From assembly GCF_000505665.1 (NCBI RefSeq), contig NC_023033.1, positions 2,260,313 through 2,324,312 of the forward strand: a stretch of DNA of 64,000 nt, in the 5' to 3' direction. Below the pieces are notes generated by a model. That model made no database searches and was not told where the DNA came from. It worked only from the letters and a program-made list of their open reading frames with translations. The DNA comes from Thermosynechococcus sp. NK55a (GTDB taxonomy: Bacteria > Cyanobacteriota > Cyanobacteriia > Thermosynechococcales > Thermosynechococcaceae). The position numbers and the translations under genes were made by a program. Below are positions 5,339 to 42,447 of this stretch, in pieces; within the stretch, counting starts at the first letter, position 1; each line of letters begins with the position of its first letter.

Positions 5339-6945
5339 AAATTTGGCTGTACGATACTACCCTGCGCGATGGCGCCCAGCGAGAAGGTCTCTCCCTCTCT
5401 CTGGAAGATAAACTGCGGATTGCCCGCCAACTGGATCGCCTTGGGATTCCCTTTATTGAGGGGGGGTGGCCGGGAGCCAATCCCAAGGACGTACAGTTTT
5501 TTTGGCAGTTGCAGGAGACACCCCTACAACAGGCAGAAATCGTTGCTTTTTGTGCCACTCGTCGCCCCGGTCGCAAGGCGGCAGAGGAGCCAATGTTTGA
5601 GCCGATCCTAGCAGCCGGTACTCGCTGGGTGACCCTCTTTGGCAAGTCTTGGGATCTCCATGTCACTGACGGTCTTAAGACCAGCTTGGCGGAAAACTGC
5701 GCCATGATTGCCGATTCCATTCAGTTTCTGAAATCCCACGGACGACGGGTGATCTACGATGCTGAGCATTGGTTTGATGGTTACTTTGCCAATCCCGAAT
5801 ATGCACTCCAAACCCTTGAAACGGCTCTAGCAGCCGGTGCCGATTGGTTAGTTCTCTGTGATACCAATGGCGGTTGCCTCCCCCATCAAATTCAGGCAGT
5901 GGTGGCAGAGGTGATGGCGCACTTGGGTGGTCTTGATTGTTTGGGGATTCACACCCACAATGATGCGGGGACGGCAGTGGCCAATGCCCTTGCGGCGGTA
6001 CAAAGCGGTGTGCGGATGGTGCAGGGAACCATCAACGGCTATGGCGAACGCTGTGGCAATGCCAATCTGTGTACCTTGATTCCCAATCTGCAATTGAAAC
6101 TCGGCTATGACTGTGTCGCCCCAGAGCAGTTGGCGACGCTGACGGAAGTAAGCCGCCATGTGAGTGAAATTGTCAACCTTGCCCCCGATGATCATGCGCC
6201 CTATGTGGGTCTGTCGGCCTTTGCCCACAAGGGGGGAGTCCATGTCAGTGCTGTGCAGCGCAACCCCCGTACCTACGAGCATATTGAGCCGCATGTGGTG
6301 GGCAATCAACGGCGCATTATTATTTCTGAGCAGGCAGGCATCAGCAATATTTTGGCGAAAACCAGTGAACTCGGCTTTGAGTTGGATCGGCAGCATCCCC
6401 TGAGTCGGACGATTTTGGAGCGCATTAAGCACCTAGAAAGCGAAGGCTATCAATTTGAAGCGGCGGAGGCTAGCTTTGAACTGCTGATTCAGGAGGTACT
6501 AGGGCAACGCCAGCGACCCTTTACCCTTAAGGGCTTTGATGTCTTTTGCCGCACTGATTCACGCCAACTGGAGGCCACGATTCGCAGCCAGTCTTTGGCC
6601 ACGGTCAAAGTTGAAGTCAATGGTGAGGAGATGCTCACGGCGGCGGAGGGCAATGGCCCTGTCTCGGCATTGGATCAAGCACTGCGCAAGGCCTTGATGT
6701 CCTTTTATCCAGAGATTGCCGAGTTTCACCTGACGGACTACAAGGTGCGGATTTTAGATGGTCATGCGGGCACGGCGGCTAAAACTCGGGTGCTGGTGGA
6801 ATCCAGTAATGGGCGCGATCGCTGGGCAACGGTGGGGGTCTCTGCCAATATCATTGAAGCTTCTTACCAAGCGGTTGCTGAAGCCCTCGAATATGGCCTA
6901 CAGTGCACTCGGCGATCGCAGGCTTCTCCTTTGATGGTCTCCTGA
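5335..6945 (+). CDS. cimA: (R)-citramalate synthase
   Basis: 536 residues, the CimA size. The HMGL-like TIM barrel begins LYDTTLRDGAQREG and carries the metal-binding HTHND motif near residue 205, with NGYGERCGNANL shortly after. A C-terminal LeuA-type allosteric domain covers about 400-525 (VKVEVNGEEMLTAAEGNGPV, then TRVLVESSNGRDRWATVGVS). It condenses pyruvate and acetyl-CoA to citramalate, giving a threonine-independent route to 2-oxobutyrate and isoleucine. LeuC, which could process citramalate, is encoded at 62438. GTG at 5335 overlaps the comFB stop. Confidence 0.93.
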   Translation: MKIWLYDTTLRDGAQREGLSLSLEDKLRIARQLDRLGIPFIEGGWPGANPKDVQFFWQLQETPLQQAEIVAFCATRRPGRKAAEEPMFEPILAAGTRWVTLFGKSWDLHVTDGLKTSLAENCAMIADSIQFLKSHGRRVIYDAEHWFDGYFANPEYALQTLETALAAGADWLVLCDTNGGCLPHQIQAVVAEVMAHLGGLDCLGIHTHNDAGTAVANALAAVQSGVRMVQGTINGYGERCGNANLCTLIPNLQLKLGYDCVAPEQLATLTEVSRHVSEIVNLAPDDHAPYVGLSAFAHKGGVHVSAVQRNPRTYEHIEPHVVGNQRRIIISEQAGISNILAKTSELGFELDRQHPLSRTILERIKHLESEGYQFEAAEASFELLIQEVLGQRQRPFTLKGFDVFCRTDSRQLEATIRSQSLATVKVEVNGEEMLTAAEGNGPVSALDQALRKALMSFYPEIAEFHLTDYKVRILDGHAGTAAKTRVLVESSNGRDRWATVGVSANIIEASYQAVAEALEYGLQCTRRSQASPLMVS

Positions 6946-7020
6946 AGCCTCTGAGAACTTGACAAAATCCGCTAAGATCAAAACTGGTGTTTAGGTTGCA
7001 TCACTGCCAAGGAGCCCCGT

Positions 7021-39040: not shown

Positions 39041-39394
39041 TTAGCCACGGCCTAGATCTTTGGCCATAGAACGGAAGAAGTCCAAGCTCGGATCGCTGCG
39101 ACGGCGTTCCTGTTCTTCTGCTGGAGGCGTCATGATATCATTGACACTCGGTTCCAGTTTACCTTTGTTTTCTGCTTCTGGATTCACCCTTTCGATGGAG
39201 GAGACCAACTCCACCACTTCTACTTCTTCTTTGGCACCGCCAGTTGCAGGGAAGGTTTTTTTCACGACCCTGGGGGTACGCATGTACTCAATGTTGCCGT
39301 AGGTCTTGGCTTCATCGGGATCGAGAAAAAAGTTTTTGCTGGGTGGGGCATCAGCTTGCTTGCCCCGACGGAAAAGACCATCAAAGAGTCCCAT
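39041..39394 (-). CDS. Small soluble protein, unknown function
   Basis: 117 residues. Starts MGLFDGLFRRGKQ, a short amphipathic N-terminus of the kind that attaches to membranes, then a polar, charged body (TYGNIEYMRTPRVV, EEVEVVELVSSIERV) and a basic/acidic tail ending DFFRSMAKDLGRG. Probably disordered in large part. No family recognised. It stands alone upstream of the duplicated ABC region. Confidence 0.6.
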   Translation of the reverse strand: MGLFDGLFRRGKQADAPPSKNFFLDPDEAKTYGNIEYMRTPRVVKKTFPATGGAKEEVEVVELVSSIERVNPEAENKGKLEPSVNDIMTPPAEEQERRRSDPSLDFFRSMAKDLGRG

Positions 39395-39538
39395 AGCCGA
39401 ATTGTTACCTTTTGTGAAAAACCGCTGATCAGTTTACACTAAACAAAAGCTTAAGGGGGGCTATCAGAAATTCCACAAATGAGTGGCGATCCCTAATCCT
39501 GGGGGCAGTTTTTGTCCCTTAGGTTTTCTAACTCTAAA

Positions 39539-39766
39539 TCCTCATGGTAGGTTAACGGTGGAAATGCCACAGGATGCAGAACCATGCAAGCCAAAACCAA
39601 AGGGGAATCGCTCGTCCGCTTACTGAATGTTGGGAAGGCCTACCGTCAGCCCAACGGTCAGGTCATTAGCATTATGGAAAACATTGACCTTGAGTTACGC
39701 ACAGGGGAAATTGTTGCGCTGTTAGGGCCCTCAGGATCTGGTAAATCAACCCTGATGCGCATTATT
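39539..39766 (+). repeat. Direct repeat copy 1 (5' end of ABC ATPase gene)
   Basis: 228 bp that recur at 41050-41277, offset 1511 bp, with only two differences (39547 G/A and 39551 G/T, both upstream of the start codon). It includes the ribosome-binding region and first 61 codons of the ABC ATPase. Identity stops within CATTATT at its right end. Confidence 0.95.
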
Positions 39767-39793
39767 TACACATTATTACAGGTTGGGCAGTAG
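39584..39793 (+). pseudogene. Truncated copy of the ABC ATPase gene
   Basis: Same start and first 61 codons as the intact gene at 41095, including Walker A GPSGSGKST, then a switch to unrelated sequence (YTLLQVGQ) and a stop at 39791-39793. The 69-residue product lacks the signature and Walker B motifs and cannot be a working ATPase. It keeps what looks like the original upstream region, so a short transcript may still be made. Confidence 0.9.
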
Positions 39794-39911
39794 CCAGCGA
39801 TCGCAGGGAAAACAATACTTCCAGCAAGCCTTTGCCAAGCAAAACCAAGTCTCGCGAGGCATTCGGGAAGAAATTCAGCAGTTTAGTCACCGCACGCTTG
39901 TCCAAGGCTAG
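39762..39911 (+). pseudogene. 3' remnant of an unknown coding sequence
   Basis: In the frame ending at TAG 39909-39911 the DNA is open from the repeat junction: about 49 codons reading RLGSSQRSQGKQYFQQAFAK and then IREEIQQFSHRTLVQG. The composition (Gln, Arg, Ser helices) looks protein-like. It has no start of its own and begins exactly where the ABC copy breaks off. Its stop codon is shared with the convergent FkbM gene (CTAG), as in native gene pairs here, so the two probably arrived together. Family unknown. Confidence 0.5.
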
Positions 39912-40897
39912 CCCCCTGGCTGCAACAAAAGCTGGGCAATTGGCAGCTCAGTAATATCCCTGTCCATCAGAGGCTGTACTTGTTCCAAGATAGAGAAAAT
40001 TTCTTGGCGACAGTTCCATTGAGGATTCTCACCGTACTCAAGGGTGAGATGTACTAAAATTTCCAGTGCATAGTCAGGGAAGTCTAGGGCATCCGCGATA
40101 GCTGCCAGTTTTAGTAGGTGTACTGGCGTCTGCAGGTGAGCATTTTGCGGCTGTTGATCGTGGCTGAGTAAATCTCGCAGGTAGATCGCATCTGCCCATA
40201 GAAGTTGGCCCGTTCGCCGTTGAGACCGTAAAGGTGAAAGGTAACGCGGCAAGCGGCACCAGCCGTCATTAGTTAACAGATCAAAGAGCACAAAGCCTTG
40301 CCCTCGCAAGTAAGCATCAATATCACTAAAGAGGGGTTGACCTCTATACACCTCTGAGAACTCAACTTCAATAATAATCCCTAAAGTAGTTGCGGCTAAA
40401 AGAGCCTCACCCCCTTTCAAAACATCAAGATCTGCACCTTGAACATCCACCTGGAGAACGTCCACGCTCTCCAGTCCTTTCTCTTGGGCAAAAGCGCTCA
40501 GGGTAGTTGTTTCCACCTGGACGGTTGCTTCAATGTTCAGACTAGGGTTAAATCCTTGAAAGCGGGATGTATAACTCAAATTGGGCTCATAGAGAGAGCT
40601 GCAGTGGGTTGCACGCGTAATATAAAGGGTTGCTTCACCCACTGCTCGGCCAAGGGCAAGAGGATAGTGCCGCTCAAACCAATGGATTCCTTGGGCTTCG
40701 AGAGCAGCATTTGCCTCATCACAAGCCTCTGGATCCGCATCAAAGCCATAAATCTTTAAGTTGGGAGCAAAAATATGCCAAGGGGATTGGGCATAGTTAT
40801 CTTCACGATAGATTTTGCGAGAACCAACAATGCACAGGGTCAAGGAAATGGGGTCAAGCTTTCCAGCAGTCTTTAGCGTGTTGTTAATGAGTCCCAT
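39908..40897 (-). CDS. FkbM-family SAM-dependent methyltransferase
   Basis: 329 residues from ATG 40897 (a TTG at 40918 is in frame). FkbM features: IYGFDADPEACDEAN (SAM-binding acidic strand), TTLSAFAQEKGLESVDVLQV followed by DVQGADLDVLKGGEALL, then IIIEVEFSEVYRGQPLFSDI. FkbM enzymes O-methylate sugars or polyketides; the C-terminal 80 residues are extra helices. It sits alone between the two repeats and lacks neighbours of its pathway, consistent with recent acquisition. Confidence 0.85.
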   Translation of the reverse strand: MGLINNTLKTAGKLDPISLTLCIVGSRKIYREDNYAQSPWHIFAPNLKIYGFDADPEACDEANAALEAQGIHWFERHYPLALGRAVGEATLYITRATHCSSLYEPNLSYTSRFQGFNPSLNIEATVQVETTTLSAFAQEKGLESVDVLQVDVQGADLDVLKGGEALLAATTLGIIIEVEFSEVYRGQPLFSDIDAYLRGQGFVLFDLLTNDGWCRLPRYLSPLRSQRRTGQLLWADAIYLRDLLSHDQQPQNAHLQTPVHLLKLAAIADALDFPDYALEILVHLTLEYGENPQWNCRQEIFSILEQVQPLMDRDITELPIAQLLLQPGG

Positions 40898-41049
40898 GGC
40901 ACGATAGAACTTGTACAAGTGAACCAGTGTTCTGAGTCATGTTCCAAGACTGAGTGTATTTTGCTCAATTCTAGTTACCTAGGCCAGGTAGCCGCTCCGA
41001 CATCATTGATTTTTTCTAATTTTCATTCCTTGGCTCTCCAAGACTGAAG

Positions 41050-41277
41050 TCCTCATGATAGTTTAACGGTGGAAATGCCACAGGATGCAGAACCATGCAA
41101 GCCAAAACCAAAGGGGAATCGCTCGTCCGCTTACTGAATGTTGGGAAGGCCTACCGTCAGCCCAACGGTCAGGTCATTAGCATTATGGAAAACATTGACC
41201 TTGAGTTACGCACAGGGGAAATTGTTGCGCTGTTAGGGCCCTCAGGATCTGGTAAATCAACCCTGATGCGCATTATT
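41050..41277 (+). repeat. Direct repeat copy 2 (5' end of intact ABC ATPase gene)
   Basis: Second copy of the 228-bp segment at 39539-39766. Left of 41050 the sequence differs from that left of copy 1, so the intact gene has a different upstream region from the truncated one. Confidence 0.95.
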
Positions 41278-42447
41278 ACAGGTTTGGTTGCACCTACATC
41301 TGGGCAGGTCTTGTACCGCGAGCAGCCAATGCAGGGCTTGAATCCGGGGGCTGCGATTGTTTTTCAAAGTTCGGCGCTCTATCCGTGGCTAACGGTTTTG
41401 GAAAATGTGGAGTTGGGTCTAAAGGCCTTGGGAGAAGGTCCGCGATCGCGCCGGCGCAAGGCACTGCGGATGATTGACATTATTGGCTTAGACGGGTTTG
41501 AAAATGCCTACCCCAAGGAACTGTCGGGGGGGATGCGGCAGCGGGTGGGATTTGCCCGTGCTTTGGCGGTGGAGCCGGAACTCCTGTGTATGGATGAGCC
41601 ATTTTCGGCCTTGGATGTGCTGACCGCCGAGAACCTGCGTTTTGAACTTCTCGATCTGTGGCTAGAGCACAAAATTCCTACCCAGAGCATTTTGATTGTC
41701 ACCCACCACATTGAAGAGGCGGTGATTCTCGCCGATCGCATTATTGTTTTGGGGAGCAACCCCGGTCGCGTCCGCGCTGATTTTCCAGTCACCTTGCCCC
41801 ACTATCGCGATCGCAAGAACCCCGAGTTTCAAGCCACGGTGGATCGCATCTATAAAATTCTCACTAACCCCCATGTGGACGAATTAGAGGAACTGGAACC
41901 CAGGCCAACTACCATTGCCAGCCCTCAGGAACCGCGTTACCCGCTGCTTCCCCATGTGCGCATTGGCTCGATCGCCGGTCTATTGGAACTCCTAGAACAC
42001 CGCAAAGAGGACCTCTACCGCATTGCCCAGGAGTTGCAATTGGAGCTAGATGATATTCTGCCCATTGTCGAAGGTGCCCAGATGATGGAACTAGTGGAAC
42101 TGAAAGAGGGGGATATCAGTGTGACCCCTATTGGCAATGCCTTTATTCAGGGGGACATTGACCAGCGCAAGCTGATTATTCGTCAGCAACTCCTCAAGCA
42201 TATCCGCCTTGTGCAGCAAATCCATACTTTCCTGATGGCCAAGCAAAACCACCGCATTCCTGAAAGTTTGGTGCTGGATATTCTAGAGCGACACTTTACG
42301 CCGCAGGAGGCCGAGCGCCAGCTCAATACCGCCATTGACTGGGGACGCTATGCCGAACTCTTTGGCTATGACGAACCGTCTAAGGAAATTTTCCTTGAAG
42401 TCAGTGAACCTGAAGAGCCACTGCCCCTTGAAACGACTGCCGTTTGA
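41095..42447 (+). CDS. Nitrate/sulfonate-type ABC transporter ATPase with C-terminal extra domain
   Basis: 450 residues. ATPase core about 10-260: Walker A GPSGSGKST, signature LSGGMRQRVGFARALA, Walker B LLCMDEPFSALD, switch His in TILIVTHH-like SILIVTHHIEEAV. Residues 285-450 form an AAA-associated C-terminal domain seen in some Ssu/Nrt/Tau-type ATPases (RIGSIAGLLELLEHRKEDLY, then DIDQRKLIIRQQLLKHIRLV). No permease or binding protein is adjacent. The first 61 codons are duplicated upstream. Confidence 0.9.
   Translation: MQAKTKGESLVRLLNVGKAYRQPNGQVISIMENIDLELRTGEIVALLGPSGSGKSTLMRIITGLVAPTSGQVLYREQPMQGLNPGAAIVFQSSALYPWLTVLENVELGLKALGEGPRSRRRKALRMIDIIGLDGFENAYPKELSGGMRQRVGFARALAVEPELLCMDEPFSALDVLTAENLRFELLDLWLEHKIPTQSILIVTHHIEEAVILADRIIVLGSNPGRVRADFPVTLPHYRDRKNPEFQATVDRIYKILTNPHVDELEELEPRPTTIASPQEPRYPLLPHVRIGSIAGLLELLEHRKEDLYRIAQELQLELDDILPIVEGAQMMELVELKEGDISVTPIGNAFIQGDIDQRKLIIRQQLLKHIRLVQQIHTFLMAKQNHRIPESLVLDILERHFTPQEAERQLNTAIDWGRYAELFGYDEPSKEIFLEVSEPEEPLPLETTAV

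What the first reader, a model, noticed from the sequence alone, without database searches (positions are those of the whole stretch)
39539..41277. Campbell-like duplication carrying an FkbM methyltransferase into an ABC ATPase gene
Seen: a 228-bp segment with the ribosome-binding region and first 61 codons of the ABC ATPase is present twice with two mismatches. The first copy is cut off at codon 61 and the second is intact. Between them are a 3' coding remnant and an FkbM gene. This is what integration of a circular or looped DNA through a short homologous fragment leaves: truncated gene, foreign cargo, complete gene. Inference: a recent acquisition, in a group known for natural transformation. 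The intact gene has lost its original upstream region, so its regulation has probably changed.
Basis: partly seen in the sequence, partly recalled or inferred. Interest (0 to 1): 0.75.

Follow-up and report, generated by a model that had tools for sequence, protein, structure and literature searches.

The report
Methyltransferase cassette between duplicated transporter-gene starts
In this hot-spring cyanobacterium a methyltransferase gene sits between a broken and a whole copy of a transporter gene, as if pasted in by recombination; a second species has the same arrangement, so it is probably older than its near-identical repeats suggest.

Summary
39539-39766 is repeated at 41050-41277 (2 mismatches in 228 bp). 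The first copy is a truncated ABC-ATPase gene, the second intact. Between them lie the last ~42 codons of a Sll0314/Alr1548-type TPR gene (X) and an intact FkbM gene. The anatomy fits a single-crossover insertion-duplication: 7 of 10 other genus genomes have the same neighbourhood with one uninterrupted copy, and no transposase ORF lies between the copies.

Two inferences need changing. "Recent" does not follow: G005 (probably T. vestitus BP-1) carries the same FkbM allele between two copies of the same gene, with another left junction. FkbM differs between G000 and G005 about as much as the faster local genes, yet within each genome the copies are ~99-100% identical. I favour one old insertion homogenised by gene conversion; two insertions are not excluded. 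"Foreign" is half right: FkbM is found in 9 of 11 genus genomes, but this allele is a xenolog, synonymously ~2-4 times further from the resident allele than neighbouring genes. G004 has another xenolog, at the X-terC site, beside a decayed 5' ABC piece. A good case of a known kind.

The parts
39395..39538 (+). native upstream region of the ABC gene, now in front of the truncated copy
   Evidence: 91% identical and continuous with the upstream region of the single-copy locus in G003
39509..39538 (+). native-type flank of copy 1 (diverged from the flank of copy 2)
   Evidence: 14 mismatches in 30 columns
39539..39766 (+). repeat copy 1: 5' end of the ABC ATPase gene to codon 61
   Evidence: 226/228 identical to 41050-41277
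39584..39793 (+). truncated ABC ATPase ORF, 69 aa, keeps the Walker A motif
39767..39777 (+). 11-bp insertion near the left junction, resembling a small tandem duplication
   Evidence: alignment
39783..39911 (+). remnant: last ~42 codons and stop of gene X (Sll0314/Alr1548 family TPR protein)
   Evidence: 71% aa to residues 262-303 of intact X; NF041522 for intact X
39908..40897 (-). FkbM family methyltransferase, 329 aa, allele lineage B
   Evidence: PF05050 E 3e-21, TIGR01444; dN 0.042 / dS 0.57 to G005
40898..41019 (.). spacer upstream of FkbM, similar to that of G005 and G004
   Evidence: 90/121 identical to G005; G000-G004 score 62 against shuffle maximum 32
41020..41049 (+). cassette-type flank of copy 2
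   Evidence: resembles the flank in G004 and G005
41050..41277 (+). repeat copy 2: 5' end of the intact ABC gene
41095..42447 (+). intact ABC ATPase, 450 aa, with C-terminal AAA_assoc_C domain

Best explanation
A DNA fragment carrying the 3' end of gene X, a divergent FkbM allele and the 5' end of the ABC ATPase gene integrated at the ABC locus by one homologous crossover in the ABC 5' region. Its other end was joined illegitimately, probably by end-to-end closing of the donor into a circle. This left truncated ABC / X remnant / FkbM / complete ABC. It most likely happened before the split of G000 and G005. Gene conversion between the two 5' copies has since kept them nearly identical within each genome, small deletions or duplications reshaped the left junction separately, and G003 lost the cassette, possibly by precise recombination between the repeats. 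Shown: anatomy, shared arrangement in G005, single-copy sites, xenologous alleles, homogenised pattern. Inferred: circular intermediate, single origin, conversion as the agent, excision in G003.
For: G005 has copy 1 (~420 bp with 1 mismatch to copy 2), FkbM and intact ABC in the same order and place, and appears to keep ~20 bp of X 3' end before the FkbM stop (by eye). FkbM dS G000-G005 is 0.57 [0.44-0.76]; neighbours DUF2214 0.53, CMD 0.46, g39041 0.41, ACS 0.31, ABC 0.25. The FkbM-ABC spacer identity (90/121) resembles the native ABC upstream (85/110) and the CMD-g42950 spacer (97/138). At 27 columns both copies agree within each genome but differ between G000 and G005, and no column marks copy 1 against copy 2 in both. 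G001, G003, G004, G006, G007, G008 and G009 have one continuous copy in the same neighbourhood, and the window's upstream region and ABC gene are colinear with G003. Allele B against resident allele A: dS 1.50-2.16 in four pairs whose neighbours give 0.33-1.03. G000 and G004 share the FkbM spacer plus ABC 5' flank: score 62, shuffles at most 32, 0 of 500. Bench parallel: in E. coli 56 of 60 Lac- clones gave a duplication PCR product; 14 were sequenced and had duplications of 109-950 bp, ascribed to a single crossover with a shortened circle (PMC3240628, section 12 read).
Against: The left junctions differ: G000 joins ABC codon ~63 to X about 126 bp before its stop; G005 joins ABC codon ~115 to the last ~20 bp of X. 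Two separate insertions would explain this directly. G003, closer to G000 than G005 is, lacks the cassette, so a loss must be assumed. FkbM dS G000-G005 is at the top of the neighbours' range, and its interval does not overlap those of ABC, ACS, X or TerC. No genome with X-FkbM-ABC as native neighbours was found. Circular and linear donors cannot be told apart from the product alone.
Confidence: 0.55

Rival explanations
1. Two separate, fairly recent insertions of related cassettes into the ABC gene, one in the G000 lineage after its split from G003 and one in the G005 lineage. The repeats are alike because they are young; no conversion is needed.
For: Different left junctions; G003 lacks the cassette; near-identical repeats in each genome; FkbM dS slightly above neighbours.
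Against: FkbM and spacer divergence between G000 and G005 fall in the range of local genes and spacers, which would be a coincidence; the same gene part would have been hit twice by the same cassette; with a divergent donor circle, parts of copy 1 should be donor-type, yet the copies are identical over 215 bp in G000.
Confidence: 0.27
2. One-ended illegitimate integration of a linear fragment (HFIR) on a replicated or sister chromosome, rather than a circle: homology at the ABC end, end joining at the X end.
For: X remnant at the illegitimate end and ABC homology at the other; Thermosynechococcus E542 carries about 3-6 genome copies under standard conditions (PMC8091003, passages seen).
Against: HFIR was predicted to delete recipient DNA, and duplication in E. 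coli was traced to circles (PMC3240628); here host DNA is duplicated, not deleted.
Confidence: 0.12
3. Intragenomic relocation: the resident FkbM with the end of X moved from the X-terC site to the ABC gene.
For: G000, G003 and G005 lack FkbM at the X-terC site and share its 148-149-bp spacer type; the remnant is the end of X.
Against: Allele B is synonymously about 2-4 times further from allele A than neighbouring genes are. The X-terC spacer keeps a short stretch that is slightly more A-like than B-like (local scores 22, 24, 26 against best B scores 16, 22, 20 for G000, G003, G005), hinting that an A allele was deleted there; this is weak.
Confidence: 0.05
4. Assembly artefact.
For: Short repeats can mislead 454-type assemblies.
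Against: A second, single-contig genome (G005) has the same order with different junctions; the left junction is unique sequence. If G000 is NK55a, it was closed with Sanger reads, one gap elsewhere in a hemagglutinin-like gene (PMC3907722, whole text read).
Confidence: 0.01

Closest known systems
Campbell-type insertion-duplication by single crossover (as after circularised, end-trimmed donor DNA in E. coli, PMC3240628)
   Same: Part of the target gene is duplicated on both sides of the cargo (109-950 bp in the sequenced clones there; 228 and ~420 bp here), one copy truncated at the joint, no loss of host DNA.
   Different: There, selected plasmid DNA in the laboratory; here a natural chromosomal fragment, apparently kept across speciation, with homogenised repeats.
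Homology-facilitated illegitimate recombination (HFIR)
   Same: Homology at one end, illegitimate joint at the other, known from naturally competent bacteria.
   Different: HFIR is expected to delete recipient DNA; here it is duplicated.
Xenologous allele replacement of patchy accessory genes
   Same: Patchy, decaying and replaced FkbM alleles among close species.
   Different: Here the allele also sits in a new place, inside an unrelated transporter gene. That such FkbM enzymes modify surface glycans is recalled, not tested.

Membership tests
Campbell-type insertion-duplication | Direct repeats of target sequence flank the insert | tested here: met
   258-nt family with a 228-bp core, 2 mismatches
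Campbell-type insertion-duplication | One truncated and one complete copy of the target gene | tested here: met
   69-aa and 450-aa ORFs
Campbell-type insertion-duplication | Single uninterrupted copy at the same site in relatives | tested here: met
   7 of 10 other genus genomes; G005 has the insertion; G002 and G010 have the ABC gene in another neighbourhood
Campbell-type insertion-duplication | No loss of recipient DNA | tested here: met
   Upstream region and whole ABC gene colinear with G003
Campbell-type insertion-duplication | Circular donor intermediate | not testable with these tools
   Only the end product is available
Homology-facilitated illegitimate recombination | Deletion of recipient DNA at the illegitimate end | tested here: not met
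   Duplication instead of deletion; expectation taken from PMC3240628
Transposon or IS insertion | Transposase gene, or short target duplication with terminal inverted repeats | tested here: not met
   ORFs of 60 aa or more between the copies are FkbM and frames overlapping it; flanking repeats are 228 bp; none of the inverted repeats listed frames the insert
FkbM family methyltransferase | Methyltransf_21 / TIGR01444 profile above curated cut-off | tested here: met
   76.7 bits against 22.7; 61.9 against 37.7
FkbM family methyltransferase | O-methyltransferase activity on a sugar or other substrate | not testable with these tools
   No assay; substrate unknown
Sll0314/Alr1548 TPR family (source of the remnant) | NF041522 profile above cut-off for the intact relative | tested here: met
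   337.1 bits against 225 for the intact X of G000; remnant 71% aa to its residues 262-303

The most novel reading that the evidence does not exclude
A reversible, self-maintained cassette: gene conversion keeps the flanking 5' copies identical, so homologous recombination can remove FkbM at any time and restore a seamless ABC gene under its native upstream region. The cassette would switch together the presence of the methyltransferase and the promoter context of the ABC ATPase, with G003 as the excised state and G000/G005 as the inserted state.
Probability: 0.15. Interest if true: 0.6.

Novelty: new member of a known kind. Interest (0 to 1): 0.36.

Why it matters
It is a natural, phylogenetically bracketed example of single-crossover insertion-duplication in a genus that includes a naturally transformable and a polyploid strain. 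It also warns that near-identical flanking repeats do not date an insertion when conversion can act. The FkbM gene turns over fast here (three allele lineages, absent from two of 11 genomes, one change of place in the G000/G005 clade). The presence/absence pattern in close species makes the single-origin and excision ideas directly testable by PCR and sequencing.

Tried and rejected
Rejected: IS/transposon origin; assembly artefact (second genome G005); simple relocation of the resident allele (allele B too divergent). A single donor lineage for B (G000/G005) and C (G004) is suggested by the shared spacer and ABC flank but not by the tree: B+C has support 57/53, and neither C+A (p-AU 0.125) nor A+B (p-AU 0.449) is rejected. 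The G004 ABC fragment looks like its own species' ABC in the coding part but cassette-type upstream (by eye); I read this as recombination with the resident gene and cannot order the events.

Results against or beside my reading: G004 and G007 also share a short FkbM-proximal stretch of spacer (score 42, 0 of 500), and the G005-G004 match (44, 0 of 500) covers only the ABC flank; G000 spacer against the native G003 upstream gives 30 (1 of 500) and G004 against it 22 (66 of 500).

Led nowhere: the genome-contig scan with FkbM gave 3 loci, one of them in the genus. The sigma-70 scan of 39300-41300 found none (mean 2.3 in shuffles); terminator-like sites 5 against a mean of 2.4. The Rfam gathering scan of L001, L026, L027 and L035 found nothing. 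FkbM loci of G012, G013, G037 and G038 showed none of the 13 other query genes, and the 12-kb X loci of G002 and G010 showed no TerC or FkbM. Papers: 'Thermosynechococcus' + 'FkbM' 0 papers; FkbM + cyanobacteria terms 3, by listing not on this genus; five or more of six recombination terms, 1 unrelated phage paper; listings seen, not read through. With these searches I found no printed account of this arrangement; that is no proof of absence. PMC8209445 was seen in passages only.

Faulty steps: the dS table had frame errors (DUF2214, ChlH and some other cells) and was replaced; the IQ-TREE runs failed on thread count and were redone. In one search the ungapped scar counts are in register only for G003, so I use its local-alignment scores. 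Rows dropped: G008 (pieces only) from the FkbM tree; G001 and G003 have no FkbM. In the core tree G002, G009 and G010 have many gaps.

Full report
OBSERVATION. The repeat is real: 228 bp with two mismatches at 39539-39766 and 41050-41277, the only direct repeat of 80 nt or more found in the window. Copy 1 gives a 69-aa ORF that keeps the Walker A motif; copy 2 is the start of an intact 450-aa ABC ATPase with an AAA_assoc_C domain. Between them are the last ~42 codons of a TPR-family gene, called X here (residues 262-303, 71% aa; NF041522), and a 329-aa FkbM methyltransferase on the minus strand. The stops of FkbM and of the X remnant overlap in CTAG (39908-39911), the same convergent 4-bp overlap as in G004, where FkbM sits beside intact X (ORFs 5984-6973 and 6970-7881 of L027).

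THE GENUS. The window lies in a 2,520,064-bp single-contig genome. PMC3907722 (whole text read) gives ~2,519,964 bp with one unclosed gap for Thermosynechococcus NK55a, so I infer that G000 is NK55a. G005 (2,593,857 bp) has the length I recall for BP-1; PMC8209445 passages give 2.59 MB for BP-1 and 92.53% ANI to NK55a. Eleven genus genomes were searched, G000 included.

WHERE FkbM USUALLY SITS. 9 of 11 genomes have a FkbM match; G001 and G003 have none. Of the nine, G000, G002, G004, G005, G009 and G010 are full length or nearly so, G006 is split between two frames, G007 has an internal deletion, and G008 has pieces at two contig ends. In G004, G007 and G009, and as far as contig ends allow in G006 and G008, FkbM lies between X and a terC-family gene. 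In G000, G003 and G005 these two genes are separated by one type of 148-149-bp spacer without FkbM, and in G001 by a different 110-bp spacer. In G002 and G010 FkbM is elsewhere. In the wider family FkbM relatives at 42-52% identity occur in G012, G013, G037 and G038, so the gene is not new to the group.

THE ABC LOCUS. G001, G003, G004, G006, G007, G008 and G009 have the same neighbours (ACS - DUF2214 - 39041 gene - ABC - CMD; in G009 the ACS gene is cut by a contig end) and one uninterrupted ABC copy. G005 has two copies flanking FkbM, as in the window. G002 and G010 have the ABC gene in another neighbourhood. So 2 of 11 have the cassette here. A third genome, G004, has a decayed ABC 5' fragment (internal deletion, in-frame stop; by eye) between FkbM and terC at the X site, besides its intact ABC gene.

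ALLELES. FkbM falls into lineage A (G006, G007, G009; 97/95), lineage B (G000, G005; 100/100) and C (G004) (G008 left out as too short). The core genes put G004 with G008 (SH-aLRT 100, bootstrap 93), but a FkbM clade of G004 with G007 is rejected (p-AU 0.0002). FkbM dS within A is 0.42-0.60 (four pairs), within or close to the range of neighbouring genes, except G007-G008 (0.58 from pieces, neighbours 0.22-0.44). B-A is 1.50-2.16, C-A 1.45-1.77 and B-C 1.29-1.33, where neighbouring genes of the same pairs give 0.15-1.04 (intervals for six pairs). B and C are therefore best read as xenologs relative to A. G000 and G004 share the spacer upstream of FkbM and its joint to an ABC 5' flank (score 62, shuffles at most 32, 0 of 500); the G005-G004 match (44, 0 of 500) covers the ABC flank. 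Allele A has no such joint: G000-G007 23 (47 of 500), G005-G007 26 (13 of 500), although G004-G007 share a FkbM-proximal stretch (42, 0 of 500). Whether B and C form a clade is unresolved (57/53), and the alternatives are not rejected (p-AU 0.125 and 0.449).

AGE. The repeats look young (0 mismatches over 215 bp in G000; 1 over ~420 bp in G005). But FkbM between G000 and G005 has dS 0.57 [0.44-0.76] beside ABC-locus neighbours of 0.25-0.53, and its spacer is 90/121 identical beside 85/110 and 97/138 for two other local spacers; the X-terC spacer is 137/149. At 27 columns both copies agree within each genome but differ between genomes, and at no column do copy 1 and copy 2 differ in the same way in both. 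One old insertion with concerted evolution of the copies explains this best. Two separate insertions remain possible, because the left junctions differ: ABC codon ~63 joined to X in G000, codon ~115 joined to the last ~20 bp of X in G005 (X part of G005 by eye). In G005 the copy-1 flank is cassette-type, in G000 native-type, as expected if conversion tracts ended at different points.

MECHANISM. Duplication of part of the target gene around the cargo, with no loss of host DNA, is what a single crossover with a circular donor gives. PMC3240628 (section 12 read, other passages seen) found a duplication PCR product in 56 of 60 Lac- clones where deletion had been predicted; 14 were sequenced, with duplications of 109-950 bp, ascribed to a shortened re-circularised donor. 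BP-1 is listed as naturally transformable (PMC6567925 passage), and strain E542 has about 3-6 genome copies under standard conditions (PMC8091003 passages), so sister chromosomes are at hand for conversion. Circularisation, conversion and the excision in G003 are inferences.

CONSEQUENCE. FkbM allele B is intact and looks under purifying selection (G000-G005 dN 0.042, dS 0.57). The intact ABC gene keeps 75 bp of alignable sequence upstream of its ATG, including a block conserved across the genus genomes aligned, and has new sequence further out. No sigma-70 consensus was found, so changed regulation is possible but not shown.

VERDICT. A correctly seen, well-supported insertion-duplication of a known kind.

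Noticed in passing
L027 5650-5970 (G004, X-terC site): Decayed 5' fragment of the ABC ATPase between FkbM and terC; its coding part resembles G004's own ABC gene, its upstream flank the G000/G005 cassette.
   Followed up: partly
L029 7556-8087 (G007): FkbM with a large internal deletion, left as two open frames.
   Followed up: partly
G002:C1:716651-718001: The ABC ATPase orthologue of G002 is split between two frames with internal stops: pseudogene or sequencing error.
   Followed up: no
window 39760-39780 and L026 8440-8465: Both left junctions (G000 and G005) carry a small tandem duplication of about 10-12 bp, a possible trace of end joining.
   Followed up: partly
L035 and L037 (X-terC region): G000-G005 dS at the X-terC locus (0.13-0.17) is lower than at the ABC locus (0.25-0.53), which suggests uneven recombination along these genomes.
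   Followed up: no
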